From a virus: a stretch of 53,260 nt of DNA. Where the stretch lies: the IMG/VR virus record IMGVR_UViG_3300031983_000023, positions 1-53,260 of that record, one strand, 5' to 3'. Below the pieces are notes generated by a model. That model worked only from the letters and a program-made list of their open reading frames with translations, ran no database searches and was not told the origin of the DNA. A program made the position numbers and the translations under genes. Of this stretch, positions 8,783-41,003 are shown one piece after another (the stretch's first letter is position 1; the number at the start of each line of letters is the position of its first letter).

Positions 8783-9201
8783 GTCGCCGGCCCCACGTTC
8801 TTGACGTCCCAGGGCACGAGCCGGACCGTCACCTGCGCGTACACCGGATTTTGCGCGTCGTAGGCCGGCTTGCTCTTTGCGCTGAGCTCGCAGCGCGGCA
8901 TGATGTCCCTGTCGAACTCCGCCCCGTGGGAGTCTGTGCGGATCACCGTCACGTCGTGCAGCTCCCTCCTGGTGAACCAATCCTCCAGGGCCTGTCTCGT
9001 CACGCTGCCCCTGGAAAGCTTGTAGGTCGCTTCCACGGTCGGGATGGTGATCACCCCGTTCGTGATCTTCCGGACCTTGCCGAACTCCGGAACCTCCAGC
9101 TCCCCCTGTTCCATCGGAACCTCTGCGAAGTTGACGAGCCCCTGGAGCTCCTCCCCGTCCACGAGCAGACGGACCTTTTCGCCCATGTCTCCCTTCTGCA
9201 T
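8779..9201 (-). CDS. Tail tube protein
   Basis: 140 residues, the usual size for contractile tail tubes. The sequence is beta-rich, with VRKITNGVITIPTVEATYKL, a conserved tube-type segment, followed by DWFTRRELHDVTVIRTD. It lies immediately after the sheath gene and before the chaperone, the standard order. It polymerises as hexameric rings inside the sheath. Confidence 0.8.
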   Translation of the reverse strand: MQKGDMGEKVRLLVDGEELQGLVNFAEVPMEQGELEVPEFGKVRKITNGVITIPTVEATYKLSRGSVTRQALEDWFTRRELHDVTVIRTDSHGAEFDRDIMPRCELSAKSKPAYDAQNPVYAQVTVRLVPWDVKNVGPAT

Positions 9202-9213
9202 TTTCGCCTCCCG

Positions 9214-11031: not shown

Positions 11032-11032
11032 T

Positions 11033-11311
11033 TTACACCTCCCTGACCGTGAACAGTTTGCGCACGGGGCTCTCCGCGAAGTCCCTGTGCTTGACCACTC
11101 GCTCCGGCACCTCCGCGGTCCCGTTGGGGCCGAAGAAGTACACGTCGCGCCCTATGTGCAGCTCGAAGCTCCTGTTGTGCCGGAACACGAGCAGGTACCT
11201 GCCCCCCTTCCTGGGGGCCGGCTTCCGCTCCTGGGCCGGTCTTTTTAGCTCGTTCTTATCGTTGCCCCGAGGGTCGTCTGCGTCGCTTTCGAAAGTTTTC
11301 TTGGAGTCCAT
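11033..11311 (-). CDS. Small protein between sheath and neck genes, unknown
   Basis: 92 residues, charged N-terminus (MDSKKTFESDADDPRGND) followed by a beta-rich body with LLVFRHNRSFELHIGRDVYFFGPN. Good start: GGAGATATGG-type ribosome site upstream of 11311. Its stop is one base before the sheath start. No recognised motif; a virion or assembly role is likely from position. Confidence 0.6.
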   Translation of the reverse strand: MDSKKTFESDADDPRGNDKNELKRPAQERKPAPRKGGRYLLVFRHNRSFELHIGRDVYFFGPNGTAEVPERVVKHRDFAESPVRKLFTVREV

Positions 11312-12435
11312 ATCTCCTCCTTGGCCTCCACGTCCACGTAGTACTGGACGCGGTAGATTTCCTCCGCCCCCTCCACCGGCTCCGGCTCCACGGGGGCGTC
11401 GTCGTACAATATATCATGGGGGCGCCCGTTGATGTACACCACGTTCCATGACAGCGCCCGCCTTATTGCCCTGGACATTTTGGCGACGAGCTCGTGGTGC
11501 CTGGCCACGGCGTCGATGGCCACGCGCCAGGAGCTTATCTTGCCCTCCGCCGCGAACGTGAACTCGGAGCCGTCCCAGTGCAGCAGCCTCTCGGTCCTTG
11601 TGTCGCCCCTAAGCACCGGCACGGGGGCCAGGCCCCAAAGCACCACCCCGGGAAGGAGAATCTCGGTCTCCCACCTCCCGAAGCTCACGGGCAGCAGAAG
11701 CGTCACGTCCGCCGCGGAGTAGGAGTTGAGCAGCGCGGGGCCGTCGAACAGGTGCCCCAGCCCGAAGCTCCCGCTTCCCTCCCGCTCCAGGTTGTGCGTC
11801 TCGGAGTTGCCCCCCCCGCTTACCTTCACCACGGCGTACCGCTCCACGAATCCGGGCGAGTCCAGGTCGACGGTCTTGTCGCCGGCGGAGCCGGAAAAGG
11901 TTCCCGAGGCCACGGCCACGCCCTCGCCGTACAGCTCCTGCAGGGCGAGCTCCAGGGAGACTTTCAGCCCCTCGAAAATGTCCCTGGGGGCCTCCGCCTT
12001 GTAGGCCACGGCGTTGGACAGCACCACCCAGTCGGAGTCGCCGTGCAGCGCCGTCAGCCTGATCCTCTCGGCCGTGGAGATCCCGGAGATGTCCAGGGTC
12101 GCATCGCTCAGGGTCCCCCAGACCGGCAGCCAGAACGCCTTGCCCGCCCCGAGGTCCAGCTTGTACTCGAAGTCGCCCACGGCCCGGAACGGCCCCCTGC
12201 CCTTCCGGAAGGACTTCATGCTCACCGCCAGGCGGTCGTAGCTGGACAGGTCCTTCGCCTGGGAGAACACCCTCTCGGCGTACTCCCCGGAGCTTCCGGC
12301 CGGAAACCCGACCAGCACGGACTTGGAAAGGTCGAGGGCGGCCACCAGGTCCTTGCTCTCCACGTCGGCAACCGTCACGCTGCCGGAGGTCGCCAGGGCC
12401 GTGCTGTCGTCGAAGGGCTCGATTCTCTCGTTCAT
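11245..12435 (-). CDS. Virion structural protein with beta-sandwich N-terminal domain
   Basis: 396 residues from ATG at 12435, overlapping the upstream stop (ATGA). Residues 25-125 have the look of a galactose-binding-like jelly roll: AKDLSSYDRLAVSMKSF, FEYKLDLGAGKAFWLPVW, then SDATLDISGISTAERIRL. The rest is beta-rich with no recognised motif. It lies between gpG-like completion and sheath genes, so a neck, tail-terminator or decoration role is likely. It overlaps the next gene by 67 bases, which is unusual here. Confidence 0.6.
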   Translation of the reverse strand: MNERIEPFDDSTALATSGSVTVADVESKDLVAALDLSKSVLVGFPAGSSGEYAERVFSQAKDLSSYDRLAVSMKSFRKGRGPFRAVGDFEYKLDLGAGKAFWLPVWGTLSDATLDISGISTAERIRLTALHGDSDWVVLSNAVAYKAEAPRDIFEGLKVSLELALQELYGEGVAVASGTFSGSAGDKTVDLDSPGFVERYAVVKVSGGGNSETHNLEREGSGSFGLGHLFDGPALLNSYSAADVTLLLPVSFGRWETEILLPGVVLWGLAPVPVLRGDTRTERLLHWDGSEFTFAAEGKISSWRVAIDAVARHHELVAKMSRAIRRALSWNVVYINGRPHDILYDDAPVEPEPVEGAEEIYRVQYYVDVEAKEEIWTPRKLSKATQTTLGATIRTS

Positions 12436-13049
12436 AGCAAGTCGTCCCAGTCGTCCCAGCCGGGGGCCCTCCGGGACACCCGGTCTATAAGGTCCTCCCT
12501 CGAGGTGTTGATGTATTTGACGATCGCTCTCTTGACCTCGCTCGCCGACGGCTCCATGTTGCGAATCCACAGCATCATGCTCCTGTACGCGTTGGCGAAG
12601 GCGGCTCTCGGCGGAATCCTGATGAGCTTCCCTCCCCTCATCCGTATCACGGTCCCGTACTCGTGCACGATGAACAGGTGCCGCAGCTGCAGCTCGGATT
12701 CGTGGTGCTTCGCGCGGCTCTGCGCCACCCGGTAGCCTCGGCCCTTGAGCTTGCGGATGCGCATCATGTTGATGTAGGACTTCCGCTCCAGGTCTCCCAG
12801 CGCGAAAAGCGGCGTCGACGGCTTCGGCAGGCCCCTCCTGGACTTCCTCTTCACGGTCGCGGGCTTGAGCCTCCTGAGCCCCAGGGTGTCGCTCCGGATC
12901 CCCTTCCGGAACGTTTCTATCAGGTTCACGGCGGCGTTTTTCGCCTGCGTGTCGGCTATGGGGATGATCATTTTGGGGAGCCTCCTGATCCTGGAGCGCT
13001 TCGCTTCGTAGTGGTCTGAGAACTCGAACCTGAAAAGCGGCTTAGCCAT
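12432..13049 (-). CDS. Phage virion morphogenesis/tail completion protein (gpG/gp10-like)
   Basis: 205 residues from ATG at 13049; a GTG one codon upstream is also possible. The basic N-terminal half contains LKPATVKRKSRRGLPKPSTP followed by LFALGDLERKSYINM, which fits the GpG/HK97-gp10 morphogenesis family (substrate-like pattern tPLf.tG.L..Si). HLFIVHEYGTVIRM and IPPRAAF resemble the conserved 'hqyG..iPaR.f' end of this family. It acts in joining heads and tails. Confidence 0.7.
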   Translation of the reverse strand: MAKPLFRFEFSDHYEAKRSRIRRLPKMIIPIADTQAKNAAVNLIETFRKGIRSDTLGLRRLKPATVKRKSRRGLPKPSTPLFALGDLERKSYINMMRIRKLKGRGYRVAQSRAKHHESELQLRHLFIVHEYGTVIRMRGGKLIRIPPRAAFANAYRSMMLWIRNMEPSASEVKRAIVKYINTSREDLIDRVSRRAPGWDDWDDLL

Positions 13050-25189: not shown

Positions 25190-26761
25190 TCACCTCGCCA
25201 TCGCCAGGATACGCCTGGCGACGAGCATGTATGCTATGGCGTGCAGGTAGTGGTCCGGGTCGTCGCCGGCCCAGACGTACTTGCCCCGCCTCTCGTCGTA
25301 GACCCTGGTCAGCGCCCCGAGGTGCTCCCGCAGCTCCGGCATTTCCTCCGCCTCCCTGGGCAGCACGAGCTCCCCGGTGAGCAGGGCCTCCTTGACCGCG
25401 TCGATCGTCTGCGTCCTCTCCACGGTTATGATCTTGTGCGCCCCGTCCACTATGTCCCGCTTGACTTCGCCGTAGAAGCAGTAGAATCCGCCCCGGAAAC
25501 TCCTGGCGAACTTCTTGGACAGCCGCCCCTCCGGGAGGGCGTCGATCACCCCGGCGACGCACCTGTACTGCCTGTACAGCCCGGCCAGCTCGGAGAAGTC
25601 CTCCACCTCCCCGGAGCCGAAGGAGCGCAGGAGCCTCACCACCAACCTGGAACCCTGGACTTCCCCGATCGCCACGTACATGGCGTTGCCCACGTCGCAG
25701 CCCAGCAGGCACCTGCCCTTCCCCGGGCCCATGGTGTGATCCCCGACCTCCCCTGCATCCAGGGAAATCTTTGCCCCGGAGGCCTCGTAGGGCAGCCCGA
25801 GGTCGCCGTTGTAGAACCTCTGCATAACGCTGTCGTTGACCAGGCCCTTCTCGAACCTCTCGAGCAGCTCGGCGACTCGCACTTTCGTGCTGAACATCTT
25901 CGAGATGTGGTACCCCGAGCCTACGCCCCGCTCGTTCGTCCTGACCCAAGCCCCCTCCGCGTACCTGTCCAGCTCCTTGCCGCACTCGCAGATCACCCGT
26001 ATGTCCCTGCTCCCCTCGCGATCCCACCTCTTGTCGATCACCGCGTAGTCCCCAGTATCGAGCCTCTGGACCACGTGCTTGAAGAAATCCGGATACACCC
26101 AGCGGCCGCACGCCTGGCACTTAATGTTCCACTGCTTCCGGTCGCTCGCCCTGTACAGCGCAGCCATGCCGTGGCCCGAGACGGAGGGCTGCCCGACCCT
26201 CGTCTCCGTCTTGTCCTCCGCCGCGCTCAGCCTCTCCACGGCCATGTTGAGGTTGCCCTGGTCGCACTCGTCCAGCTCGTCCACCACCAGGTCGTCCGCG
26301 GGGTACTCGGTGAAAACGCTCGTGGTGTTTGATCCGGCGAAGGCTATGCTCCCTATCCCGAGATGCTTGAGGTACATGCTCTCCGACTGCTTGGTTGTCA
26401 TCATCCTGGAGGCCCGGAGTACTTCCTTATAATAGGCAGTGAACTCTATCGTCCGGTCGACTCGATTCTTGACGAAGCGGCTCGCGAGCTGGAAGGTGGG
26501 CATAACGTAAAAAACCGCCCTCCCGTCTATGGCCGGGGTGATTGCCTTCATGCCGAGCAGCCATTCCGACGCCCCATTTTGCGTCGCCTTCTGGAGCACC
26601 ACCAGCGGGCTGTCGTCCGTGTAGAGCGCCTTGAGATACACCCTGCCCCGGAAGTCAAGCCTCTTATCCCTGTGAGTCCGGTGGTGCCGCAAGACAGCCC
26701 TCACCCGCCGGTTCGACTTTGCGAGCCCCTCGTCAATCCTTGCCTTTTCTCCGACGAGCAT
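25190..26761 (-). CDS. terL: Terminase large subunit
   Basis: 523 residues from ATG at 26761, after GGGGGAGG, overlapping the small subunit by 29 bases. ATPase: VVLQKATQNGASEWLLG is a terminase-type Walker A (QxGxS form), DDLVVDELDECD is Walker B. An internal zinc ribbon (CQACGRW, CECGKEL) is unusual but found in some GpA-like terminases. Nuclease: LLGCDVGNAMYVAI gives the first Asp and GDDPDHYLHAIAYM the last. It pumps DNA into proheads and cuts concatemers. Confidence 0.88.
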   Translation of the reverse strand: MLVGEKARIDEGLAKSNRRVRAVLRHHRTHRDKRLDFRGRVYLKALYTDDSPLVVLQKATQNGASEWLLGMKAITPAIDGRAVFYVMPTFQLASRFVKNRVDRTIEFTAYYKEVLRASRMMTTKQSESMYLKHLGIGSIAFAGSNTTSVFTEYPADDLVVDELDECDQGNLNMAVERLSAAEDKTETRVGQPSVSGHGMAALYRASDRKQWNIKCQACGRWVYPDFFKHVVQRLDTGDYAVIDKRWDREGSRDIRVICECGKELDRYAEGAWVRTNERGVGSGYHISKMFSTKVRVAELLERFEKGLVNDSVMQRFYNGDLGLPYEASGAKISLDAGEVGDHTMGPGKGRCLLGCDVGNAMYVAIGEVQGSRLVVRLLRSFGSGEVEDFSELAGLYRQYRCVAGVIDALPEGRLSKKFARSFRGGFYCFYGEVKRDIVDGAHKIITVERTQTIDAVKEALLTGELVLPREAEEMPELREHLGALTRVYDERRGKYVWAGDDPDHYLHAIAYMLVARRILAMAR

Positions 26762-27194
26762 TCGCCTCCCCCGCCTTCGTCTTGGGTTTCCGCAGGGCTT
26801 CCGGTTCGATGAAAAACTGGGATAGCAGCTCCCCGTACCACTCCTCGTCCTCTGCAGATAGCTCCATGTCATAGCTCAGGTTGACCAGCCGTCCTTCCAC
26901 GCTCACGTTCAGCTGAGGCAGCCCGTCGAGATAGTTCATGAAAAGGCGCTGCGCCGCCACGTTTCCCTTGATCACTTCCTGAAACATCGACCGGATGAAC
27001 ATTTCTTTTCGCTTCACCAGGACGGTGTGCATTCTCTTGCCCTTGCCGACTTCTATCTCCTGGGAGCCGTCCAGGTACTCCCGGATCATGTCGGTATAAG
27101 TCCGCCCCTTCTTTGGCCTTCCCGCGGGATTGCCGCTTGTACCAGGCGGCCAGGGCCGGCCCCTGGGTTTCCCTTCCTCTGGTATGTTCTCCAT
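26733..27194 (-). CDS. Terminase small subunit-like (DUF5681-type)
   Basis: 153 residues. N-terminus PPGTSGNPAGRPKKGRTYTD is the NPAGRPK motif of DUF5681 proteins, which commonly precede phage terL. The rest is helical (VAAQRLFMNYLDGLPQLNVS). It would recognise the packaging start site. Its ribosome site is weak (GAGGGGAAAA), and the guide array lies 82 bases upstream, so the array's transcript probably runs into it. Confidence 0.75.
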   Translation of the reverse strand: MENIPEEGKPRGRPWPPGTSGNPAGRPKKGRTYTDMIREYLDGSQEIEVGKGKRMHTVLVKRKEMFIRSMFQEVIKGNVAAQRLFMNYLDGLPQLNVSVEGRLVNLSYDMELSAEDEEWYGELLSQFFIEPEALRKPKTKAGEANARRRKGKD

Positions 27195-27276
27195 TTTTCC
27201 CCTCTTGCTATTCTCCCGCTGTTTTACAACGGCGGTTTAAACGGTGACGGTTTTCGCTTTCGCAGGTTCGCCGCCA

Positions 27277-28007
27277 ACCTCCGCTCCCACCGGCTGGGCT
27301 TCTCTCCGGCCGTGGCCCGCTCCCGTGGTCTGGGCTTCTCACTCGCCGGTGGCCCGCTCACCCACACTGGGTTTCTCCACTACCCTGGCCCGCTCTGCTC
27401 AAGTGGACTTCTCCGTCGCGGTGGCACGCTCTCTCGACCTGGGTTTCTCGGGGAAGATGGCCCGCTCCGGTGGTGTGGGTTTCTCCCAGGACATGGCCCG
27501 CTCGGTCCGGGTGGATTTCTCTGGAGAGGTGGCCCGCTCCATCCGCATGGGCTTCTCGCCTACAGTGGCCCGCTTCCCGTCCGTGGGTTTCTCGCTCTTT
27601 TTGGCTCGCTCTATCACAATGGATTTCTCATGGTGCCTGGCCCGCTCATCGAGCCTGGATTTCTCCCGGGCGATGGCCCGCTCTTGCAAGCTGGGTTTCT
27701 CCTCTGCCTTGGCCCGCTCTCCAGCCGTGGGCTTCTTGGACTTCCTGGCCCGCTCGCTCCTGGTGGGCTTCTCCCTGTTCTTGGCCCGCTCTGAGCATTT
27801 GGGTTTCTCGTTGGTCATGGCCCGCTCGACCGGCCTGGGTTTCTCGCGGTTCGTGGCTCGCTCCCCCCGTTTGGGTTTCTTAAGTTCGATGGCCCGCTCC
27901 AGTCGTCTGGGTTTCTCCACGATCGTGGCCCGCTCCCCCTCAATGATTTTCTCTTGGAAAGTGGCTCGCTCCCCGCCTGTGGGTTTCTTGCCGGAGGTGG
28001 CTCTTCC
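27277..28007 (-). repeat. TIGR-type tandem interspaced guide RNA array
   Basis: About 40 conserved 10-base repeats occur every 18 bases, alternating between two kinds. On the minus strand type A is GAGCGGGCCA and type B is GAGAAACCCA (with single-base variants such as GAGAAGCCCA and GAGAAATCCA). Each pair is separated by 8 fully variable bases, giving a 36-bp double unit about 20 times. Positions run from 27295 in 18-base steps, with one 9-base spacer at 27341-27349. The edges (27277-27286 and 27998-28007) are degenerate. All spacers I compared (about 39) differ from each other. The array lies directly downstream of the Tas-like gene on the same strand. A 36-nt unit holding two short guides is the known TIGR (tigRNA) design. 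Confidence 0.9.
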
Positions 28008-28824
28008 TCCACTCGCTATGTTTGTGCCCCAGATACTCCTCGTCGTAGAGGGGCCGTATGGGCAAGCCCTCCAGTGCCCGCCATATGACGTACAGGTCCT
28101 TGATGAACATTTTCACCATGTAGCGCCTGGCCGCGTTGTGCTGGTGTCCCGCCTTTGGCCGCTTCGGATCAGTCGGGTTCTTGCTCTCCTCGCCCCAATC
28201 CTCCGACTCAAGACGGTGCTTCACGTTGTCATAGTAAACTCTATACGGGCTGCCATGCACGAGAAACTGCTTGCCGAGCACGCCCAGCAGCTTGGATTTC
28301 AGGAAGGCGTTGTATGGGCGCACAAAGCCCTTCGTTTTTTTGTCGCCGCGGATCAGGGTATCGGTCGCGACCAGTACCCTTTTCCCCTTTATCTTTTTCC
28401 AGACCTTCCCGCGCACAAGGCCTGGATTCATACCGGCGAACTGCCAGCCTTTGGAGACGTTCTCGAACTTGTGTATGTCGAACTCTGTAACGATCACGGC
28501 AGCCAGCATCTCGCCGACTCCCTTCACGTCCCTAAGATAGCTAATCCAGAGCGGGTGCTTGTGGATTAGAGGGACGATCGCCTTTATCATGGCGAGCTCA
28601 AATTTCAGTTTATCGTCCCTCCGCTCCATGAGTACCATGAGCAAAGCGGCGTCGCGGTCCGGCCTCCCCTTTTTGGCCTCTCCATTTTTCGTCAAGCCAA
28701 GTCGGCCGTCCAAGGCTATACGCTCGTCTTGAGCGTCATAATAAGCCCGCGTGAAGATGCGGATCGACTCCATCATCTCCGGGGTAAACCTTTCATCCGG
28801 GTCCGGACAACATACCGTTTTCAT
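27940..28824 (-). CDS. tas: Tas-like protein (IS110/Nop-type C-terminal domain), guide array partner
   Basis: 294 residues. An N-terminal helical part (residues 60-90, coiled-coil-like) precedes the IS110 Tnp20/Nop-type core: LRDVKGVGEMLAAVIVTEFD (residues 97-116, helix-hairpin-helix), WQFAGMNPGLVRGK (127-140), and GHQHNAARRYMVKMFIKDLY (226-245). The RuvC/DEDD domain of IS110 and any HNH or RuvC fusion are absent, so this resembles the nuclease-free form of Tas proteins. ATG at 28824 overlaps the ParB-like stop (ATGA). The last 23 codons read into the first repeats of the array and stop inside it. It probably binds the 36-nt guides; targeting without cutting is inferred. Confidence 0.85.
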   Translation of the reverse strand: MKTVCCPDPDERFTPEMMESIRIFTRAYYDAQDERIALDGRLGLTKNGEAKKGRPDRDAALLMVLMERRDDKLKFELAMIKAIVPLIHKHPLWISYLRDVKGVGEMLAAVIVTEFDIHKFENVSKGWQFAGMNPGLVRGKVWKKIKGKRVLVATDTLIRGDKKTKGFVRPYNAFLKSKLLGVLGKQFLVHGSPYRVYYDNVKHRLESEDWGEESKNPTDPKRPKAGHQHNAARRYMVKMFIKDLYVIWRALEGLPIRPLYDEEYLGHKHSEWRKSHLRQETHRRGASHFPRENH

Positions 28825-29531
28825 GCCGATACCCCCACTTTCTTGAGAATGTCGGCAATCAGAGCGTAGACCTCCTGGAGGAGCTTGATCGTTTGGTCAT
28901 CGTACTCGATGGCTCCCTGGGCCTTCGCCGCGTTGATGAATCCTCTGAGAAGCATCGTCGGCGCATTCCACCCCCCTGCTGTTCTTGCAAAATGTTCCTG
29001 GTCGCTGTCGGCTTTTTTGCCATCAAGATGCTTGGCAAGCGGAGCAACAGCGGCAGATACCGCTATCCTCGTCCCGTTCTGGGTGACGATGGATCTCCCC
29101 TCCACCAGTTTCCGGACACGCTCCACGTCCATGTCCAGGGCCTTGGCGATTATAGGCCAGGGCACGCGGTCCCTCCGCATGCCGAGGGCAAAATGCACCT
29201 TGTCCTTCGGGGTGAGCTGCAGCGCCCCCGAGTTTGCGGAATGCGCCGCGTCAATCCGCATCGCGACCTCGTTCGCATACTCCCGAAGGATAACCACGGT
29301 TTCGGCCTTGTCGCCCTGCACTCTGAGCAGCGCTTTCGCCCTGTGGAAACCGTCAATGATCCGCAGACTTTTCGAGTCCACTACAATCGGGGTGTTGAAA
29401 CTACGCCCCGACAGCAGGATTTCCTCCAGCTTGTGAACGTTGGTTGAATCTAGCTTTCCGGCTTCGTGCCTCGGCCAGATTCTCCAGTCCTGGACCAGTT
29501 CCAGAACTTTGACCTTTTTTTTTGTGTCCAT
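28821..29531 (-). CDS. ParB-like nuclease-fold/DNA-binding protein
   Basis: 236 residues from ATG at 29531 after GGAGG. ParB N-domain signs: LEEILLSGRSFNTPIVVDSK, then the RIIDGFHRAKALLRVQGDKA box (the ParB 'G.hR..A' motif). LTPKDKVHFALGMRRDRVPW followed by PIIAKALDMDVERVRKLVEG is a helix-turn-helix. The codon mix is more AT-rich than the neighbours, as in the Tas gene. It is the first gene of the Tas operon and could regulate it or help load it on DNA. Whether it belongs functionally to the guide system is unknown. Confidence 0.75.
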   Translation of the reverse strand: MDTKKKVKVLELVQDWRIWPRHEAGKLDSTNVHKLEEILLSGRSFNTPIVVDSKSLRIIDGFHRAKALLRVQGDKAETVVILREYANEVAMRIDAAHSANSGALQLTPKDKVHFALGMRRDRVPWPIIAKALDMDVERVRKLVEGRSIVTQNGTRIAVSAAVAPLAKHLDGKKADSDQEHFARTAGGWNAPTMLLRGFINAAKAQGAIEYDDQTIKLLQEVYALIADILKKVGVSA

Positions 29532-29561
29532 TAGACACCTCCATACGGAACAATTTTTGTA

Positions 29562-29577
29562 TCTCCCACACGGGAGA
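29562..29577 (-). promoter_or_regulatory. Leader hairpin in the ParB-Tas operon (second)
   Basis: TCTCCC and GGGAGA arms with a 4-base loop, followed on the minus strand by an A/U-rich stretch (ATACAAAAATTG). It lies between promoter and the ParB-like start and could act as a weak attenuator or protein-binding site. Confidence 0.4.
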
Positions 29578-29583
29578 CCCCTT

Positions 29584-29600
29584 ACCGGCCAACGGCCGGT
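29584..29600 (-). promoter_or_regulatory. Leader palindrome in the ParB-Tas operon (first)
   Basis: ACCGGCC and GGCCGGT, a perfect 7-base inverted repeat with a 3-base loop, 18 bases after the promoter's -10 box. It is a candidate operator for the ParB-like protein or an RNA hairpin. Both readings are inference. Confidence 0.4.
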
Positions 29601-29617
29601 GGTTTTAAACCTTTTCA

Positions 29618-29646
29618 AATATATCTCTGTTCTATTACGTAGGCAA
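29618..29646 (-). promoter_or_regulatory. Promoter of the ParB-Tas-array operon
   Basis: Minus strand TTGCCT (29646-29641), 17-base spacer, TATATT (29623-29618). Start expected near 29611, about 80 bases before the ParB-like ATG. The array, 1.6 kb downstream on the same strand, has no promoter of its own that I can see, so this one is likely to produce the guide precursor. Confidence 0.6.
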
Positions 29647-29648
29647 CG

Positions 29649-30215
29649 CTATGGTTTTTGCAGCACCCCCAATCGCCTGGCTGCACGGAACAGCTCCCAG
29701 ATGCTTTCCGGTTCCTGGATCCCCGTCCGGAAGTGCATCCTTCCGCAGGCCCGGCAAAAGACCAGCAGGCAGTAGAAGCATCTGTAGGCTCTTCGCAGCG
29801 GGATCCTCCGCTTGCACTCCGCGCAGTCCACCTCCCCCGGACACTCGAGCAGTTCCCTCTCCTGGTCCGCTATCGTCCTGAGCAGGCTGTCCCTCTCAGC
29901 CGGGGTCTTTGGTATGCGGTGGATATTCACGCGTACCCCAGGTAGCCGTCGTAGAGGCAAAAGATTTCCCTGGACGAGCTGGGAGTCTCCCCCTGCCTCC
30001 ACAGCGGGGGGGGCGACGGTCTTTGTCTTTCGCCTGATGTAGCCCAGCTCCTCGAGGGTCTTGAGGCAGTTGGCCACGGTCGCCCTTGAAACGCTGGTCT
30101 TTTCGGCGATGTAGAAGCTCGTCGCCCTGGTTTTCATGGGCTTCAGATCCCTCACGGCCGAGTACAGAAAATTATACACTTTCCGGTCGTTCAGGCTCAG
30201 CTCTTCTTTTCCCAT
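29649..30215 (-). CDS. Winged-helix protein with C-terminal zinc ribbon
   Basis: 188 residues. Residues 8-62 form a winged helix (RKVYNFLYSAVRDL, then IAEKTSVSRATVANCLKTLE, the recognition helix). The C-terminal part has CAECKRRIPLRRAYRCFYC and CRACGRMH, likely binding two zinc ions. Such proteins act as phage regulators or replication helpers. It overlaps the upstream Cys-rich gene by one base. Confidence 0.65.
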   Translation of the reverse strand: MGKEELSLNDRKVYNFLYSAVRDLKPMKTRATSFYIAEKTSVSRATVANCLKTLEELGYIRRKTKTVAPPAVEAGGDSQLVQGNLLPLRRLPGVRVNIHRIPKTPAERDSLLRTIADQERELLECPGEVDCAECKRRIPLRRAYRCFYCLLVFCRACGRMHFRTGIQEPESIWELFRAARRLGVLQKP

Positions 30216-31174: not shown

Positions 31175-31663
31175 CTATTCCTCCTCTCTCAAAGCTTTGT
31201 GTGTCGTCGTAGACCGCTCGATCACCTCATCATAGTCAAGCATCACTGCCGGCCTGGTATATTCCGGATTCCCGTCAACTGTCCTGCCCGACTGCGGCTC
31301 CCAGAAATGCCCATCGACATAGACCCAGGCATGCAGTCCTCCGTAGCACATCCCAACACACATCTTTCCCTTGATCCCTACGTCCCGACAGATTAAATAC
31401 ATGACCAGAATGCAGTAGTCCTCGCAATCGCCCGAACGCCACACGTACGTTTGCGCCGGCGACTGCCAATACTCATCTGCCGGATAGTGGATGCTATCGG
31501 ATACGTAGCGGATCTCCTGAGATACCCAGGTCATGGCATCCTGGATCGTCTGAATCCCAAGATTCGGGATCTCCTCAAAATCCCAGATAGGCTCTATCTT
31601 GCATCCGTTCAAACACGTCACCATGAAAATAATTGCCCACAGACTTACTCTGTTATAATTCAT
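31175..31663 (-). CDS. Lipoprotein with transglutaminase-like cysteine protease fold
   Basis: 162 residues. N-terminal hydrophobic stretch followed by TCLNGC, a lipobox (LNGC), predicts export and lipid anchoring. SGDCEDYCILVMYLICRDVG holds the Cys of a transglutaminase-like core (GDCED), and GGLHAWVYVDGHFWEPQSG the His and acidic partner. Its base composition is more AT-rich than its neighbours. A secreted, lipid-anchored enzyme in an early region could alter the envelope or block superinfection; that is speculation. Overlaps the next gene by 4 bases. Confidence 0.75.
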   Translation of the reverse strand: MNYNRVSLWAIIFMVTCLNGCKIEPIWDFEEIPNLGIQTIQDAMTWVSQEIRYVSDSIHYPADEYWQSPAQTYVWRSGDCEDYCILVMYLICRDVGIKGKMCVGMCYGGLHAWVYVDGHFWEPQSGRTVDGNPEYTRPAVMLDYDEVIERSTTTHKALREEE

Positions 31664-32238
31664 TTGCTTTTCTCTCCTCTCGTAATTTTTTTGATGCTTT
31701 TGTCCAGCCTGTCGCAGTACGCCTCCGCGAGGCTCAGGCTGTTGCCCATCACGTCGTAGGCCAGGCGCTTCGCCTCCTCTATGGTTTCCGCTACGGCTTC
31801 TCGGGTTCGGGCCTTGGCCTTCTCGCAGTCCCGCTGCACGTCGAGCAGCTGGCTGCCGATGGCCTCTATTTCTATCCGCAGCAGCTCCGCCTCGACCCCG
31901 GCTTTTTTCAACGCCTTCCTCGCGTCCAGGTACGCCGGGATCCAGGGCCTTTCGTCGTCGGGGTGAGCGGGACGGCCCACCTCGCCGAGCCATCTCATCC
32001 TTTCCCAGAGTCGCTCGATCTCCGCCTTCGCTTTCTCGGTGGGAAACTGTCCGGGCTCCGCCTCCCAGTAGAGTACGCTGCCCAGGTCTTTTGCCACCTT
32101 GTCGCAGCACGCCGGGCAGAGAAATCCTGCCGGTGACATCATGTGCAGGTTTTGCCACACCTGGTCGGAAACCTGATACACGGTTGAGTAGCCTTTCCCG
32201 CATCGGTCGCACTTCTCTCCGTCGTGTTTCTCGCTCAT
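31660..32238 (-). CDS. Zinc-finger and coiled-coil protein, unknown
   Basis: 192 residues. CDRCGKGYS and CPACCDK could bind zinc in the first 45 residues. Residues 65-185 are largely helical with a heptad look (AELLRIEIEAIGSQLLDVQ). SD GAGGAGAGG upstream. No known function. Confidence 0.6.
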   Translation of the reverse strand: MSEKHDGEKCDRCGKGYSTVYQVSDQVWQNLHMMSPAGFLCPACCDKVAKDLGSVLYWEAEPGQFPTEKAKAEIERLWERMRWLGEVGRPAHPDDERPWIPAYLDARKALKKAGVEAELLRIEIEAIGSQLLDVQRDCEKAKARTREAVAETIEEAKRLAYDVMGNSLSLAEAYCDRLDKSIKKITRGEKSK

Positions 32239-33127: not shown

Positions 33128-33952
33128 TCACCATCCAGCCTCTTGTAATTGCCGAGCCGCAATTATATATGGCCCGCCCCAATCTCTTCTAAGTTGTCGC
33201 CATTCCGGAGACGTTGTACCGGTTCTGTTTCTCCAGAGCATCGCCATGGGCATGAATCCAAGATTCAGTGTTTTCTGAAGTCGGATTGCTGCACCCTCCA
33301 GTGTGTCTTTTGGATATCCGATCAAAACAAAACAGCGAAGAGCATGCGAGGCAACCGTAAACCCAGCTTCAAACAGCATTTCTCCCGCCCGAACCAAAGG
33401 TTTATAATCATCGGGCGCGTCGTAGGCGAAAAATATTTGCTTTGGTTTTAATCCGCGCAAGAGCTCAGCGTGCCAATCTTTCAACCTGGCAGCTTCCAGG
33501 CCCCCAGTAAATTGAGCCTGCTCTGGCTGTCTTCTGAGCATTTGAAACACAGCTTTAACGTGCTCGTCCGAACATGCCAGCAGATTGTCATCGAGCACAT
33601 TCCAACCATCCCGGATCGGCAGCTCCCGCACATTTCCCTCCCGCCGCCAGACAGAACAAAACCAGCAGCGATTTGGGCATCCTCGAGAAGTGATTACATA
33701 TCCCTGCTTTAAATACATTCCTGGCTCAAAATCACCGCTGGCCATGCCGGTTGCAGGTCCTCCGATTTTCACTGGCGCTATTTTCTTCCAAGCCTGGGCT
33801 AGTCTCTCCGCCAGCGGGAGATCCCAGGTAAAAGCTACCGAAATATGCACTTCGTCGATATCATCAGGCACAAACAAATCCGGCTCGCCTATAAAAGAAT
33901 ATGCATCGATGGGCGTCGCCCTGGTTCGGCGTGGGAATACTCGAATTATCAC
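33128..33952 (-). CDS. Radical SAM protein
   Basis: 274 residues from GTG at 33952 (GTGA overlap with the upstream ParB-like stop). ITSRGCPNRCWFCSVWRREG carries CxxxCxxC, the iron-sulphur cluster motif of radical SAM enzymes. The preceding VKIGGPATGMASGDFEPGMY resembles the B12-binding-like lead-in of some radical SAM proteins, although it is short. Later strands (AYDAPDDYK, CFVLIGYPKDTLEG) fit the partial TIM barrel. The DNA is noticeably more AT-rich than its surroundings, suggesting transfer. Substrate unknown. Confidence 0.85.
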   Translation of the reverse strand: MIIRVFPRRTRATPIDAYSFIGEPDLFVPDDIDEVHISVAFTWDLPLAERLAQAWKKIAPVKIGGPATGMASGDFEPGMYLKQGYVITSRGCPNRCWFCSVWRREGNVRELPIRDGWNVLDDNLLACSDEHVKAVFQMLRRQPEQAQFTGGLEAARLKDWHAELLRGLKPKQIFFAYDAPDDYKPLVRAGEMLFEAGFTVASHALRCFVLIGYPKDTLEGAAIRLQKTLNLGFMPMAMLWRNRTGTTSPEWRQLRRDWGGPYIIAARQLQEAGW

Positions 33953-34533
33953 CGTTCCCCCGCCAGGAGCTCCAGGGCGCCGGACGCCTTCCGCAGGTTC
34001 CGCTCCAGCGCAAACTCGACCAGCTCCTCGTACACCTCCCTGGTCACGCTGACGGAAGTCGCAAGGCTCTCCCCCCAGGCGTCCCCGAACTGCGTCCAGT
34101 CGAACTCGAGCAGCGAGGCGTAGTCCCCGATCTCCTCCACGGTGAAGGGCATCGTCCCGGACAGGTCCTCCGTCCCGAACTCGCCGGCGGCCTCGGCCAC
34201 CACCTCCGCGAGCCGGACCTGGTCCGGCCGGAACCGGGTCTCGTTGGTTTCCACGGACACCCTCATGGCCTCCTCATCGCTCACCTTCCCGAGGTTCACG
34301 CAAACGGCAATCTCCATTCCGGCGGCTGCCATGGCGGGGAGCCGGTGGTTTCCGTTCACCGCCTCGTAGCGGTCCCCCGGCTTCTCCCTGACTATCAGAT
34401 TTTCGACCTGACCATTTCTCCGGAGATTCCGCTCGAGCTGGCCCTGCAGGAATAGGTCCTCCTTGCGATAGTTCCATGACGCCATGTCGATCGACACCAG
34501 CGGGATCTCCGTCAATCTCACGATATTTCTCAT
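33949..34533 (-). CDS. ParB-like domain protein, copy 3
   Basis: 194 residues from ATG at 34533 after GGAGGAGAG (ATGA overlap with the resolvase). Shows ASWNYRKED, NLRRNGQVENLIVREKPG, AVNGNHRLPAM and VSVETNETRF. Clearly paralogous to 32482-33096, the radical SAM gene lying between the two. It retains the NGNHR box. Likely DNA-binding; real role unknown. Confidence 0.8.
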   Translation of the reverse strand: MRNIVRLTEIPLVSIDMASWNYRKEDLFLQGQLERNLRRNGQVENLIVREKPGDRYEAVNGNHRLPAMAAAGMEIAVCVNLGKVSDEEAMRVSVETNETRFRPDQVRLAEVVAEAAGEFGTEDLSGTMPFTVEEIGDYASLLEFDWTQFGDAWGESLATSVSVTREVYEELVEFALERNLRKASGALELLAGER

Positions 34534-35135
34534 TCTCTCCTCCCGATTATTTCCCTCAGCCTTTCCGCCGCCCCCTCCCCGAAGTCGGTTTTCCCGGCGG
34601 CTATCATCTCCGCCGCCTTGAGCATCAGCCAGGCGTCGGCCACGTCCACGGAGGGGAACATCCTCCCATACTTCGCCCGGACCGCCGCCAGGTAGTCCCT
34701 CGTCCTCGTCTTTCTCACGTGCCGGAAGGCCTTGCCCATGGTCGCCGCCTTCCACGTGTTCTGTGCCAGCTCCACGAACGGGACCCCGCGCCTCCACAGG
34801 AGGTAGCGTATCGCCCCGCCGATCTCCCCCTGGGTCACCAGGTAGTTGCCCTTCGCCCCGTAGGCGTACTGCTCCACCACGGCGAAGCGCTTCTCCGGGT
34901 CGAGCCTGGAGATCTCCCCTCCCACGGCCGCCAGGATTTGCTGCACGGCCCTCCACTTTCCGGTCGAGCTCCCGGAAGCCACGGTCTGGTAGTACTCGAC
35001 CCCACGTATCCGGGTCACGATGCCGGTCGATCTCAGTGACGGGTCTATGGAGATCGCCTCCATAAAAAGCGGGGCGGGATTGTCCGCCCCTGCTTCCGCA
35101 AAGGGCGCCTCCATGACTTCCTCGCCCCACTCCAT
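34530..35135 (-). CDS. RuvC-like Holliday-junction resolvase
   Basis: 201 residues from ATG at 35135; ATG at 35114, with GAGGAAGTC before it, is an alternative. The RNase H fold metal residues fit a RuvC-like enzyme: AISIDPSLRSTGIV (first Asp), FAVVEQYAYGAKGN (Glu), and a final PSVDVADAWLMLKAAEM (VADA.L.A pattern). Phage RuvC proteins cut branched DNA before packaging. It is coupled to ParB-like genes on both sides. Confidence 0.8.
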   Translation of the reverse strand: MEWGEEVMEAPFAEAGADNPAPLFMEAISIDPSLRSTGIVTRIRGVEYYQTVASGSSTGKWRAVQQILAAVGGEISRLDPEKRFAVVEQYAYGAKGNYLVTQGEIGGAIRYLLWRRGVPFVELAQNTWKAATMGKAFRHVRKTRTRDYLAAVRAKYGRMFPSVDVADAWLMLKAAEMIAAGKTDFGEGAAERLREIIGRRE

Positions 35136-35136
35136 G

Positions 35137-36618
35137 TTACTCTTCCTTCTCCCTCTTGGGGATCCGCACATCGAACTCCCCGGCCATCTTCTCGAGCACC
35201 TTCCACCGCTCCGTCTCCGCGGCCCTTCTGCCGAAAGACACTTCGCTCTCCTCGACTTCCAGGGCGGCCACGAGCAGGCACCTCACGATGAACGGCTTGA
35301 GCTCCTCCTCCGGAAGCCCCCGGATTTGCCTCAGCCCGGTCTCCGTCCAGCCCTCCCGGTAGTATTCGCCCTCTTTTTTCGGAGGCCTCTCCCATCCGTA
35401 CAGCCCGCATAGGTCCTTGCGGTAATTGTCCCACAGCCTGTCGAAGAACTGCAGCGCCAGGATCCTCTCGACCCCGTGGGTCAGGCCCGCCCTGGCCTTC
35501 TCCGCCGCCGCGTCGATGAGCTCCTTCCGGAAACCCTTCTCCCTGCTCACCAGCTTCCTCGTTTTCTTGGCCTTTTCCTTCTCCTCTTTTGTCGTGGCCG
35601 TCCCGGACCTCGCTCCTCTAATGATGCCCCAGGTCAAGCGCCCCCTGCGGGCGCCCTCCGTCACCAGGCACCGGACGGCGCCTTCGTCCTTTTTTTTGCA
35701 CTCGGTCCACTGGTAGACGTCAAGCACCCCTTCCGGCGTCTTTCCGGTGTGCCAACCCTCCGAGACCATTTTGTACTCCTCACCCTCGAGCTTCCGCTGT
35801 TGGGCCTCCACGAGGGCGTCCAGCTTCCCGTTGTAGCAGGCCGGGTCCGTGCAGAGGTCGTCCTTCCCGACGTCCGGAAAAAGCGCGGGCTGCGCCCCGG
35901 ACCTCTTGAGGCACTCGGCGCAGGTCCCCGCCTCCGGAACCAGCCCCGCGTCGTCCCTCTTGAACGGAGCGTCCCCCAGCCTGGTCAGCACGCTCTGGGC
36001 GATCATGTCCCGTAGTTCCTTCGCCGAGTACTCGCCGCCCCATCTCGTGTGATCCTTCATCTGTTTTAGGCAGGCGATCTGGTCCTCCGGCTGGAGCCCG
36101 CACAGCGCCAGGGCGTGCCCGATGTTCATCCCGCCGGCAGCGAATGTTTCCCTTGCCTCCGGCTCCAGGTCCAGCAGCCTGACCCTTCTCTGCACGTGCG
36201 AGACGGAGCAGCCGATCTCCCTCGCCGTCTCCTCCGCGTCCATGAGCTGCATGAGCTCCATAATTGCCACGGCCTCGTCCAGCGGATGGAGGTCCTCCCT
36301 CTGCACGTTCTCCACGATGCTCGCCGCCCTCGCCTCGTCGTCGCTCATTTGCATCACCGAGCAGGGCAGGTCCTTGAGCCCCACGATCTTGGCGGCCATG
36401 AACCGCCGGGCCCCGACCACTATCTCCCAGTCCTCCCCGTCGGGCCTCACCACGATGGGCTGCAGCACCCTGCCTACCGCCCTTATCGACGCGGCCAGAT
36501 CCTCGAGCTTCTCCGGGCTGGCCCCTATCGTCCTCCTGTTGTTCCTGGCCGGGTGCAAGCGCTTTATCGGCAGCATCCTCACGTCCGGGCCCTCTTTCGT
36601 CAATCCTTTTTCTTTCAT
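35137..36618 (-). CDS. ParB/RepB-like protein with Cys-rich C-terminal extension
   Basis: 493 residues. Standard ParB N-domain: PARNNRRTIG, then GRVLQPIVVRP and VVGARRFMAAKIVGL, followed by ASIVENVQREDLHPLDEAVA (ENxQR..L.P.E.A) and the KorB-type HTH AREIGCSVSHVQRRVRLLDL. Unlike cellular ParB (about 290 residues), it has a long C-terminal part with cysteines (CAECLKRSG, CTDPACYNG) and helices. Many phage ParB homologues of this kind exist without ParA and may act in DNA handling or regulation. Confidence 0.85.
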   Translation of the reverse strand: MKEKGLTKEGPDVRMLPIKRLHPARNNRRTIGASPEKLEDLAASIRAVGRVLQPIVVRPDGEDWEIVVGARRFMAAKIVGLKDLPCSVMQMSDDEARAASIVENVQREDLHPLDEAVAIMELMQLMDAEETAREIGCSVSHVQRRVRLLDLEPEARETFAAGGMNIGHALALCGLQPEDQIACLKQMKDHTRWGGEYSAKELRDMIAQSVLTRLGDAPFKRDDAGLVPEAGTCAECLKRSGAQPALFPDVGKDDLCTDPACYNGKLDALVEAQQRKLEGEEYKMVSEGWHTGKTPEGVLDVYQWTECKKKDEGAVRCLVTEGARRGRLTWGIIRGARSGTATTKEEKEKAKKTRKLVSREKGFRKELIDAAAEKARAGLTHGVERILALQFFDRLWDNYRKDLCGLYGWERPPKKEGEYYREGWTETGLRQIRGLPEEELKPFIVRCLLVAALEVEESEVSFGRRAAETERWKVLEKMAGEFDVRIPKREKEE

Positions 36619-38946: not shown

Positions 38947-38975
38947 ATCATATCACAGATCGGAAATCGGGACAA
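38947..38975 (-). promoter_or_regulatory. Promoter for the replication/ParB block
   Basis: Minus strand TTGTCC (38975-38970), 17-base spacer, TATGAT (38952-38947), overlapping the stop of the M23 peptidase gene. The transcript would start near 38940 and pass the attenuator-like hairpin before the initiator gene. Confidence 0.55.
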
Positions 38976-39579
38976 CCGCCCATAGATATCCCGGCCTGGG
39001 AAGCATCCCTGCCAGTGCCGTCTCCGGGTCCACCACCAGCTCGAAGTGCAGGTGCGGCCCCGTGGCGACTCCCGTGGATCCCACCAGGCCGATCGGCTCA
39101 CCCGCCTCCACCCAGTCGCCTTCGCGGACGAACGTCTCGGACAGGTGGCCGTACAGCGAGGCCCGCAGCAGCACGCCGTCGTGTTCGATCGTTATGTAGC
39201 CGCCGAACGTCGGGTGCCCGCGGTAGTATCCGTCCGGAGGCGGCCAGTGCTCGGCGACCTTCCCGGCGAGGGTCGCCATGACCGGCTCCCCCTCCTCGCC
39301 CGCCAGGTCCGTGCCCTTGTGCAGGTCTTCCGTTCCGCCGCCCATGGGGTCCATGCGGTAGCCGCAGCCGGAGCTCACTCTGTAGCCGGCCAGCGGCGGG
39401 AAGAGAACCACGGCCTCCTCCTCGATCGCGACTTTTTTCCTTATGAAGTCCTGCAGCCCGGAGATCTCCCGCTCCTGGCGCTCTATGGTTTTCGCCTCCC
39501 TGCCGTGGAACCAAAACACGGCCCCCAGGCAGGCCACCAGCATCACGGCCAGCACCATCGCACAGGTTTCGTTTTTCAT
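38953..39579 (-). CDS. Membrane-anchored M23 peptidase
   Basis: 208 residues. N-terminal anchor helix (MVLAVMLVACLGAVFWF), a coiled segment, then the LytM/M23 core: GCGYRMDPMGGGTEDLHKGT (metal H, DLHKGTD), YGHLSETFVREGDWVEAG and GPHLHFELV (HxH metal motif, HLHFE). All metal ligands appear present, so it should cut peptidoglycan peptides. Lies between the SMC-like ATPase and the initiator gene. A role in infection, lysis or host-wall change is open. Confidence 0.88.
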   Translation of the reverse strand: MKNETCAMVLAVMLVACLGAVFWFHGREAKTIERQEREISGLQDFIRKKVAIEEEAVVLFPPLAGYRVSSGCGYRMDPMGGGTEDLHKGTDLAGEEGEPVMATLAGKVAEHWPPPDGYYRGHPTFGGYITIEHDGVLLRASLYGHLSETFVREGDWVEAGEPIGLVGSTGVATGPHLHFELVVDPETALAGMLPRPGYLWAVVPISDL

Positions 39580-39594
39580 GCTTGCCCCCTTCAC

Positions 39595-39622
39595 AAAAAA
39601 TGCCGGGGGTTTCATCCCCCGG
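39595..39622 (-). terminator. Intrinsic terminator after the SMC-like ATPase gene
   Basis: CCGGGGG and CCCCCGG arms with a 6-base loop, then CA and a run of six Ts on the minus strand. Strong rho-independent form. Confidence 0.8.
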
Positions 39623-39629
39623 TAAGATT

Positions 39630-41003
39630 TTACAGCTCCGTCTGAAGGCGGTCTATCCTCTCCGCCTTCGTTTCCACGTGCTCGAACTTGCTCACCACCG
39701 AGCCGGCCCGCATCACGATGCAGTCCTCCCCGGGCCTCTCCCCTACGTGCTCGACGAGAATCTGGTAGCCGAACTTCTGGGACAGGTCCCGGACCACGGC
39801 GTAGCTCTCGTCGTCCAGCATGCTCCCCTCGCGGATGAACATGATCCGGAAGTCGGGCCGCAGCTCCATGCCTATGCGGGCGCTGATCCGCAGCTTCTCG
39901 GCGTCGGACTTCTGGCTGAACGGGATGTCGTCTATCAGGAGCCCCAGGTCGTCGCTGAACTCCGCGTTCTTGAACGGGAGCTCGGACTCCTCGATCATCC
40001 TGGCGCACTCGGTCCGGAGGGCCCCTATCTTCTTGGTCAGCTTCTCGCTCTCCAGGACCTTGCTCTTCTGCTCCTCCAGGGCCTCGGAGTACTCCTTGTA
40101 CTTCTGCGCCTTCTCGTTCTGGCGCCCCGCGTCGTCTATCATGGCGTCGAGCTGCTCCGTGGGCCTCCGCTTCTCCGGAATCGGGAGGGCTTTCAGCTCC
40201 TCCTCCAGCTTCCCGAAAGTTTCCGTGAACTCCTCAAGCTCTTTTTCCAGGGCGGCGATCCTTCTTCGCACTTCCTTCGCGTCCTCGTTTACGTCGGACT
40301 TGTCGCGGGTCTTGTCGTCTATCTTCCGCTGCCTCCTGTCCTGCTCGGAGTTGAACTCCTCCACCTCCCTGCGCTCGCTGTTAATCGCTGTTATGTCGGT
40401 GAAATCGGCCGGTTCACAGACGAGCCTCTGCGCGGATCCCTGGGCCCGCTTGAGCTCACGGTTAACCAGGGTCCGCTCCTGGAACAGGTCGACCGCCTTC
40501 GCCTCCACCTTCGCGGTGTCGATCCCCGCCAGGCTTTTCACCACCTCGACCTGCTCCTTCGGATTCTTGCGGGCGAACGCCAACGGGTCCATGGTGAGCT
40601 CGCTCACCAGGTTGTCGAGGAACTCCTGCCCGAGCTTCTCGCCCTTCGTGTCCTGTATCACCAGGGAGCCCCCGGTCTCGATGGAACCGTCCTCCCGCGT
40701 TATCTTGGTGATGGACCGCTTGACCTCGATCTCCCTCTCGGCGCTGCCGATCAGGGCCTTCATAAGGGCCTTGTTCTCGCCCTTCTTGATGACCGCCCAG
40801 GCGTGCTTTCCCCCGAAGTGCTTCCGGCCTATCAGGGCGCCGAACAGCCCGTCCACGACCGTGGTCTTGGCCGCCCCGTTTTCCCCGTTAATCTCCACGA
40901 ACTTCTTGTTCCGGAAGTCCACCTCCACGATCTCCACGTTGCGGAGGTTCTGGATTTTCAGGGCGAGGACGTGGTACCTTTTCTCCTCTTGCTTCTTTGC
41001 CAT
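39630..41003 (-). CDS. SMC/SbcC-like ATPase
   Basis: 457 residues. N-terminal head: VEINGENGAAKTTVVDGLFG (Walker A, GENGAAKT). Residues about 170-350 are long coiled coils (RRRIAALEKELEEFTETFG). The C-terminal head ends with LRISARIGMELRPDFRIMFI and a GSMLDDESYAVV motif in place of the usual Walker B. Shorter than SbcC (about 1000 residues). Phages often pair it with an exonuclease and an annealing protein. Likely DNA repair or recombination. Confidence 0.75.
   Translation of the reverse strand: MAKKQEEKRYHVLALKIQNLRNVEIVEVDFRNKKFVEINGENGAAKTTVVDGLFGALIGRKHFGGKHAWAVIKKGENKALMKALIGSAEREIEVKRSITKITREDGSIETGGSLVIQDTKGEKLGQEFLDNLVSELTMDPLAFARKNPKEQVEVVKSLAGIDTAKVEAKAVDLFQERTLVNRELKRAQGSAQRLVCEPADFTDITAINSERREVEEFNSEQDRRQRKIDDKTRDKSDVNEDAKEVRRRIAALEKELEEFTETFGKLEEELKALPIPEKRRPTEQLDAMIDDAGRQNEKAQKYKEYSEALEEQKSKVLESEKLTKKIGALRTECARMIEESELPFKNAEFSDDLGLLIDDIPFSQKSDAEKLRISARIGMELRPDFRIMFIREGSMLDDESYAVVRDLSQKFGYQILVEHVGERPGEDCIVMRAGSVVSKFEHVETKAERIDRLQTEL

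What the first reader, a model, noticed from the sequence alone, without database searches (positions are those of the whole stretch)
27295..28007. Array has two alternating repeat families, all-different spacers and decayed ends
Type A (GAGCGGGCCA) and type B (GAGAAACCCA) alternate without fail over about 20 double units, while every spacer compared is unique. Both repeat types start with GAG and end with CCA. Only one spacer is 9 bases long (27341-27349), and both array edges are degenerate. Such order with maximal spacer diversity implies an active process that creates or selects new spacers, not simple duplication.
Basis: seen in the sequence. Interest (0 to 1): 0.75.

Follow-up and report, generated by a model that had tools for sequence, protein, structure and literature searches.

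The report
Phage guide-RNA array with TasA and ParB
The odd repeat in this phage genome is a TIGR array, a recently described kind of CRISPR-like guide-RNA store, sitting next to its effector gene, and comparison with relatives shows that such arrays change by swapping whole guides rather than by capturing or redesigning single spacers.

Summary
On the minus strand, 28007 to 27286 holds 20 units of edge repeat (GAGCGGGCCA), 8-nt spacer, loop repeat (GAGAAACCCA), 8-nt spacer, with one 9-nt spacer and truncated edges at both ends. It is a TIGR array (TIGR-Tas, Faure et al. 2025), not a CRISPR array. The gene just upstream encodes a nuclease-less TasA: its predicted fold matches TasH and TasR at Z about 19. 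An overlapping gene before that encodes a ParB-like TasParB. This combination is already described, so the locus is a new member of a known kind.

The added value is comparative. Across 122 related loci, units turn over much faster than the genomes. When spacer A is shared by two phages, its partner across the loop is conserved in 274 of 277 cases, but its neighbour across the edge in only 138 of 272. The evolving unit is therefore the whole tigRNA, with breakpoints at edge repeats. Duplicated units and point drift also occur. So "an active process, not simple duplication" is only partly right. No target was found above chance. The function of TasA remains inferred.

The parts
27281..28007 (-). 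TIGR array: 5' truncated edge (28007-27998), 20 edge-A-loop-B units of 36 bp, 3' truncated edge GAGCGG (27286-27281)
   Evidence: period 36 also by TRF
27341..27349 (-). the only 9-nt spacer (A spacer of the unit whose edge is 27350-27359)
27940..28824 (-). tasA: Nop-domain protein without nuclease domain (P0001, 294 aa); its last 22 or so codons run into the first units of the array
   Evidence: phrog_4285 E 1.9e-30
28821..29531 (-). tasParB: ParB-like protein (start probably ATG at 29531, with GGAGGTG upstream; the longer TTG ORF reaches 29618); its end overlaps the tasA start by 4 bp (ATGA)
29618..29646 (-). sigma-70-like promoter match (TTGCCT-17-TATATT) upstream of tasParB; a consensus match only
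26733..27194 (-). next gene downstream of the array: DUF5681 protein, next to the large terminase gene; no terminator-like site on the minus strand between array and gene

Best explanation
This is a phage-borne TIGR-Tas locus of the TasParB-TasA type. Shown here: the array, TasA and TasParB lie together on one strand; TasA has the tigRNA-binding Nop fold and no nuclease; edge and loop repeats have the conserved box-like ends and the pairing pattern described for TIGR; related arrays evolve as whole A-loop-B units with breakpoints at the edge repeats. Inferred from the published system: the array is transcribed from the tasParB-tasA side, cut within the edges into about twenty 36-nt tigRNAs, and each tigRNA guides a TasA dimer to a 16-bp DNA site, A pairing with one strand and B with the other. 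Without a nuclease, TasA, probably together with TasParB, would then block, bend or silence the target instead of cutting it, most likely on a competing mobile element or the host. New guide sets arise by gain, loss, copying and exchange of 36-bp units between repeats plus point drift, with no dedicated adaptation genes seen; selection keeps A and B together because only the pair makes a guide.
For: Array anatomy. TasA sequence match to TasR 9mty (E 8.9e-11) and TasH 21kl (E 1.2e-10). AlphaFold model pLDDT 87; Foldseek's 11 hits with E <= 0.001 are all TasH or TasR chains. VIA Z 19.1 to TasH and TasR, 14.2 to an IS110-family complex, 7.3 to Nop5. TasParB model hits ParB, KorB and Noc CTPases. 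115 of 122 distinct relatives carry a parsed dual-repeat array; all 219 chains, the window's included, lie on the tas strand. Edge positions 3-8 covary (GC 1024, AT 333, GT 265 of 1653) and 4-7 pair (CG 1541, TA 35), while loop 4-7 does not pair (9.8% Watson-Crick), as PMC12045711 section 8 describes for edge against loop. Unit linkage: across the loop 274/277, across the edge 138/272 starting from A; 244/255 against 118/245 starting from B. Counted per distinct spacer shared by 2 or more loci: more than one loop partner in 3/160 A and 6/164 B; more than one edge neighbour in 50/160 and 43/164.
Against: No target found: exact A+rc(B) matches are at shuffled-control level in the phage itself, relatives, sister phages and parts of two MAGs that hold related loci. 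No terminator-like site follows the array on its strand, though TIGR arrays typically have one. The turnover data come mainly from TasA families at about 30-35% identity to the window's TasA and mostly without TasParB; the window's own nearest relative (L229, TasA 65%) shares no unit, so turnover of this very array is extrapolated. Expression, processing and DNA binding are untested here.
Confidence: 0.83

Rival explanations
1. A CRISPR-like memory: an unknown adaptation machinery captures pieces of invaders and inserts new units.
For: Maximal spacer diversity in the window; fast unit turnover between related phages, for example 5 of 12 and 8 of 25 units shared at about 95% DNA identity.
Against: No polarity of new units (shared fraction by fifth of the array, 5' to 3': 0.28, 0.38, 0.28, 0.30, 0.37); duplicates of existing units inside arrays; no matches to relatives or putative hosts above chance; repeats of 10 nt are far shorter than CRISPR repeats. 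No adaptation gene was recognised among the ORFs scanned, but not every ORF was scanned.
Confidence: 0.12
2. The repeat is protein-coding: a repetitive, variable peptide read through the array.
For: 18 bp is a multiple of 3, so ORFs run through it on both strands (27399-27920 minus, 173 aa; 27244-28569 plus, 441 aa); tasA itself reads into the first units.
Against: One 9-nt spacer breaks the register; spacers vary at all 8 positions; relatives have spacers of 7, 9 and 10 nt (40, 101 and 16 of 3,522); the last 20 or so residues of TasA are predicted with low confidence.
Confidence: 0.02
3. A guide array used for DNA bending in phage integration or recombination (an IS110-like role of the Nop protein) instead of competition or silencing.
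For: Fold kinship with the IS621/IS110 recombinase RNA-binding part (Z about 14); published suggestion that TasA might aid integrases (PMC12045711, section 10).
Against: No recombinase domain in TasA (model begins at the coiled coil); 20 different guides would be many for one attachment site; no integrase was recognised in the ORFs scanned, which are not all ORFs.
Confidence: 0.1
4. A decaying repeat left by neutral tandem duplication, spacers drifting by point mutation only.
For: Point drift between relatives is real, and duplicated units are found in relatives.
Against: Repeats stay conserved while spacers differ fully; A and B stay linked across the loop but not the edge; edge pairing covaries; tas gene and array go together in 115 of 122 relatives.
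Confidence: 0.03

Closest known systems
TIGR-TasA with TasParB (Faure et al. 2025, PMC12045711, section 44)
   Same: tasParB-tasA operon, dual-repeat array with 10-nt edge and loop repeats, nuclease-less Tas; the paper also reports many TIGR loci in phages
   Different: 20 units, more than the 'most often, 5 to 15' of the paper; GC-rich repeats (GAGCGGGCCA); no terminator-like site found after the array; tasA reads into the array
SpTIGR-TasH of Salicola phage CGphi29
   Same: 36-bp units with 8-nt spacers and near-identical repeats (AAGCGAGCCA / AAGACAACCA); same fold
   Different: TasH has an N-terminal HNH nuclease, absent here
IS110/IS621 bridge-RNA recombinases
   Same: Nop-like RNA-binding fold (Z about 14)
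   Different: No catalytic recombinase domain here; an array of many guides instead of one bridge RNA
Archaeal box C/D snoRNP protein Nop5
   Same: Nop domain fold (Z 7.3)
   Different: Works on RNA with fibrillarin and L7Ae (recalled and PMC12045711); none recognised here
CRISPR arrays
   Same: Repeats separated by unique spacers beside an effector gene
   Different: Two alternating 10-nt repeats, 8-nt spacers in pairs, no leader polarity in relatives, Nop protein as effector

Membership tests
TIGR-Tas | Array of two distinct alternating 8-12-nt repeats separated by spacers of about 9 nt | tested here: met
   10-nt edge and loop repeats, 39 of 40 spacers 8 nt and one 9 nt
TIGR-Tas | Adjacent gene encoding a Nop-domain Tas protein | tested here: met
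   P0001: phmmer to TasR and TasH; Foldseek and VIA to TasH/TasR, Z 19
[quoted passage not shown]
   GGAAGAGCCA at 28007; GAGCGG at 27286
TIGR-Tas | Typical, not defining: rho-independent terminator after the array | tested here: inconclusive
   Simple consensus scan of 27150-29700 found none on the minus strand after the array
TIGR-Tas | Edge repeat with box pair plus an additional covarying pair; loop repeat with the box pair only | tested here: met
   Pooled repeats of 115 relatives and the window: edge 3-8 and 4-7 pair and covary, loop 4-7 does not
TIGR-Tas | Array processed to 36-nt tigRNAs bound by Tas | not testable with these tools
   Only the 36-bp period agrees
TIGR-Tas | A and B spacers pair with opposite strands of one DNA target | not testable with these tools
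   Evolutionary linkage of A and B across the loop in relatives agrees; no target found
TasA subtype | No HNH or RuvC nuclease domain | tested here: met
   294 aa, model starts with the coiled-coil helix at residue 15; no nuclease in Pfam
TasParB-TasA operon | ParB-like gene in one operon with tasA | tested here: met
   P0002 phrog_1033 E 4.2e-6, ParB/KorB/Noc fold, 4-bp gene overlap; Pfam gave no match to P0002
CRISPR-Cas | Single repeat of 25-36 nt with spacers of similar size and Cas proteins | tested here: not met
   Two alternating 10-nt repeats; PADLOC scan of P0001 and P0002: no match
IS110/IS621 transposase | N-terminal DEDD RuvC-like catalytic domain | tested here: not met
   IS621 match covers model residues 14-252 against chain residues 124-314 only; nothing precedes it in P0001

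The most novel reading that the evidence does not exclude
TasA with its tigRNAs acts as a programmable parS: it marks chosen 16-bp sites on a rival or host genome and loads the ParB-like clamp TasParB there, which then spreads and silences the surrounding DNA without cutting. The guide set is reshuffled as 36-bp cassettes between arrays of co-infecting phages, so a phage population shares one pool of interchangeable guides and needs no adaptation genes.
Probability: 0.15. Interest if true: 0.85.

Novelty: new member of a known kind. Interest (0 to 1): 0.52.

Why it matters
Faure et al. [quoted passage not shown] The comparison made here answers part of it for phage TasA arrays: the unit that is gained, lost and copied is the A-loop-B guide, breakpoints fall on edge repeats, there is no leader-end growth, and spacers drift no faster than the genome. 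That supports, from natural variation, the tandem-spacer model derived from biochemistry, and it makes array growth testable by phage passage or by reads from one community.

Tried and rejected
Targets. In the window only, A+rc(B) with a gap of 0-2 gave no exact match and one match with 1 mismatch. 551 pairs against about 2 Mb of 47 record groups (near-identical groups G020, G021, G031 dropped) gave 5 exact hits, 0 in the own record, against 1-6 for other geometries and 1-3 for shuffled pairs. 1,299 distinct pairs against 3.12 Mb gave 45 exact hits, of which 33 lie in loci that I had fetched with those same patterns (L285-L317). The remaining 12, from 11 units, equal the shuffled controls (6-13). 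Two conserved units scanned in viral contigs gave 13 and 33 stretches, with no pile-up on one homologous gene beyond near-identical contigs. Window units against 7 contigs related by terminase or portal: none with 1 mismatch or fewer. Units of L050 and L051 against 636 kb and 484 kb of the MAGs that hold them: 0 exact; with 1 mismatch 4 and 0, against 1-5 and 0-2 in shuffles. The geometry A+rc(B) is my deduction from the 8-nt 3' overhangs and the C-5 rule in the paper.

Codon-like periodicity of spacer drift, expected if guides track a coding target: not seen (13 of 73 pairs of variable sites at multiples of 3, expected 24.5%). Hypervariability of spacers: not seen (B 4.2% diverged where A is identical, genomes 7.6%). 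5' or 3' polarity of turnover: none. Empty-site comparison with the sister phage L136: its contig starts inside the terminase gene, so it says nothing. Rfam: no match in the window. Plasmids: no Tas relative by tblastn of the L039 Tas. Phages collection: only CGphi29 (two records) and Microcystis phage Mvi-JY20 with P0001, the latter alone with the L039 Tas. Megablast of stretches L160 and L022 in the phages collection: none. Genome contigs with P0001 alone gave nothing; with alignment A2, 5 MAG loci. The A3 scan kept 80 of 183 loci, so the sample is not exhaustive. My motif parser is tuned to RAGCGDGYCR / RAGNMAMCCR and would miss divergent arrays; seven of 122 loci have no parsed array, among them L036 and L046, where a looser period search did see array-like repeats.

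Papers: PMC12045711, sections 4-10, 25, 44 and the figure legends read, other passages by term search, supplements not read; PMC12385481, search listing and a term search only. That no paper describes TIGR array turnover rests on the library searches alone; no preprint server is in that library.

Full report
1. Observation. Reading the minus strand from 28007 to 27286, 41 repeats alternate strictly between an edge type (consensus GAGCGGGCCA) and a loop type (GAGAAACCCA). They enclose 40 different spacers, 39 of 8 nt and one of 9 nt (27341-27349). A chain test finds 39 alternating repeats in register; 30 Markov simulations of the window reach 2. The array follows ORF 27940-28824 (minus) and overlaps its 3' end by 68 nt.

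2. Identity. The 294-aa ORF product (P0001) matches TasR (9mty, E 8.9e-11) and TasH (21kl, E 1.2e-10) by phmmer, the PHROG family 4285 annotated 'transposase' (E 1.9e-30) and, weakly, Pfam Transposase_20 (E 0.0019). Its AlphaFold model (pLDDT 87, 32 sequences) finds only TasH and TasR chains at E <= 0.001; VIA-align gives Z 19.1 to TasH and TasR, 14.2 to an IS110-family complex, 7.3 to Nop5. There is no nuclease domain, so it is TasA. The gene before it (28821-29531, minus) overlaps it by 4 bp and is ParB-like: PHROG 1033 E 4.2e-6 and a model matching ParB, KorB and Noc. PMC12045711 section 44 describes exactly such tasParB-tasA operons with arrays of 10-nt repeats. The edge repeats carry the two pairs and the loop repeats the one pair expected, with covariation over the pooled repeats of 115 relatives and the window: edge 3-8 GC 1024, AT 333, GT 265 of 1653; edge 4-7 CG 1541, TA 35, TG 45; loop 4-7 9.8% Watson-Crick. 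The locus is a TIGR-TasA system.

3. Relatives. Scans with P0001 and alignments A2, A3 and A4 of viral contigs, plus A2 of genome contigs, gave 122 distinct loci after removal of duplicate contigs (182 loci compared). A motif parser found dual-repeat chains in 115 of the 122 and in the window: 219 chains, 3,522 spacers, all on the strand of the tas gene. tblastn with the window's TasParB matches 18 of 122. The nearest relative, L229 (54,872-bp contig), has TasA 65% and TasParB 66% identical, arrays before, between and after the two genes, and no unit in common with the window. No relative shares a window unit at 2 mismatches or fewer of 16; 18 of the 20 window units were tested, as parsed.

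4. How such arrays change. Loci were grouped into 83 families (80% or more DNA identity over 800 bp or more). In 104 same-family pairs of loci (pairs at or above 98.5% identity dropped), identical spacers were 286 A-A and 264 B-B, never A-B. Given an identical A, B across the loop differs by 2 or fewer bases in 274 of 277 cases, but the neighbour across the edge in 138 of 272. Given an identical B the figures are 244 of 255 and 118 of 245. To avoid counting one event many times I also counted distinct spacers shared by at least two loci: 3 of 160 A spacers and 6 of 164 B spacers have more than one loop partner, against 50 of 160 and 43 of 164 with more than one edge neighbour. So the tigRNA unit is what is inherited and exchanged, and the breakpoints lie in edge repeats, although loop repeats are the more conserved (1.7% against 4.1% divergence in shared units). 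Recombination on repeat homology alone would be expected to hit loops at least as often, so either selection removes uncoupled pairs or the process recognises edges (inference). Turnover is fast: 5 of 12, 8 of 25 and 0 of 11 units are shared at 94.9, 94.5 and 91.1% DNA identity, but 22 of 22 at 96.0%. Order is mostly kept (1,515 concordant, 81 discordant pairs of shared units) and no end is favoured.

5. Copies and drift. In 101 representative loci, 56 pairs of identical same-type spacers lie within one array chain, against 0.67 expected from composition and 0 among 17,478 pairs of different type. One-mismatch pairs are 54 against 13.4 expected. In 27 of 55 the loop partner is also conserved (2 mismatches or fewer); the edge neighbour is conserved in 1 of 52. 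Copies are thus mostly single units or single spacers, often far apart, not long blocks. The half of the cases in which only one spacer is copied shows that the loop is not an absolute barrier. Examples with drift are L017 (positions 3-6), L020 (3-6 and 13-16) and L040 (30-33). Where A is identical, B is 4.2% diverged while the genomes are 7.6% diverged, so spacers do not mutate faster than the rest. These families are mostly TasA lineages without TasParB and distant from the window; applying the rule to the window is inference.

6. Targets. With the deduced target A+rc(B), gap 0-2, no excess over shuffled pairs or wrong geometries was found in the window, in about 3 Mb of related and sister phages, or in parts of two MAGs that carry related loci. 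Two conserved units scanned through viral contigs showed no pile-up. Drift shows no codon period. The natural targets stay unknown.

7. Mechanism. Shown: anatomy, fold, repeat pairing, unit-wise evolution. Inferred from the published TasA, TasR and TasH experiments (PMC12045711, sections 5-8): transcription of the array, Tas-dependent processing to 36-nt tigRNAs, and binding of a DNA site by both spacers. Speculative: what TasA and TasParB do at the site. Silencing or blocking of a competitor is the simplest reading, since TasA cannot cut and ParB-family clamps spread on DNA (general knowledge, not tested here).

8. Verdict. The system is known since 2025, so the locus is a new member of a known kind. 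The new element is the comparative rule that arrays turn over by whole guides at edge repeats. I found no paper describing it in the library searched.

Noticed in passing
window 33949-35130 and 35137-36618 (minus): Two further ParB-like genes besides tasParB (PHROG ParB-like, Pfam ParB_N), so this phage carries three ParB-family proteins.
   Followed up: no
window 27940-28007; also L015, L026, L029, L229: The 3' end of tasA is read through the first array units, adding about 20 residues predicted with low confidence; the same seems to happen in several relatives.
   Followed up: partly
L047 (216,501-bp contig) 7169-12496: A very large phage contig with 16 parsed TIGR array pieces over about 5 kb on either side of its tas gene; its repeats often end in CCG in both edge and loop.
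   Followed up: partly
L018 3773-4083: A 36-bp tandem repeat that is not of the edge/loop type lies about 4.6 kb before the tas gene of the same contig; unexplained.
   Followed up: no
L026, L027, L028: Three nearly identical phage contigs (99.7-100%) differ in the array only by two substitutions in one B spacer.
   Followed up: partly
PHROG phrog_4285: A phage protein family annotated 'transposase, integration and excision' matches this Tas protein; phage annotations with this label may hide TIGR loci.
   Followed up: no
window 31175-32212 (minus) and 38953-40008 (minus): A transglutaminase-like protein near the TIGR operon and an endolysin-like metallo-endopeptidase.
   Followed up: no
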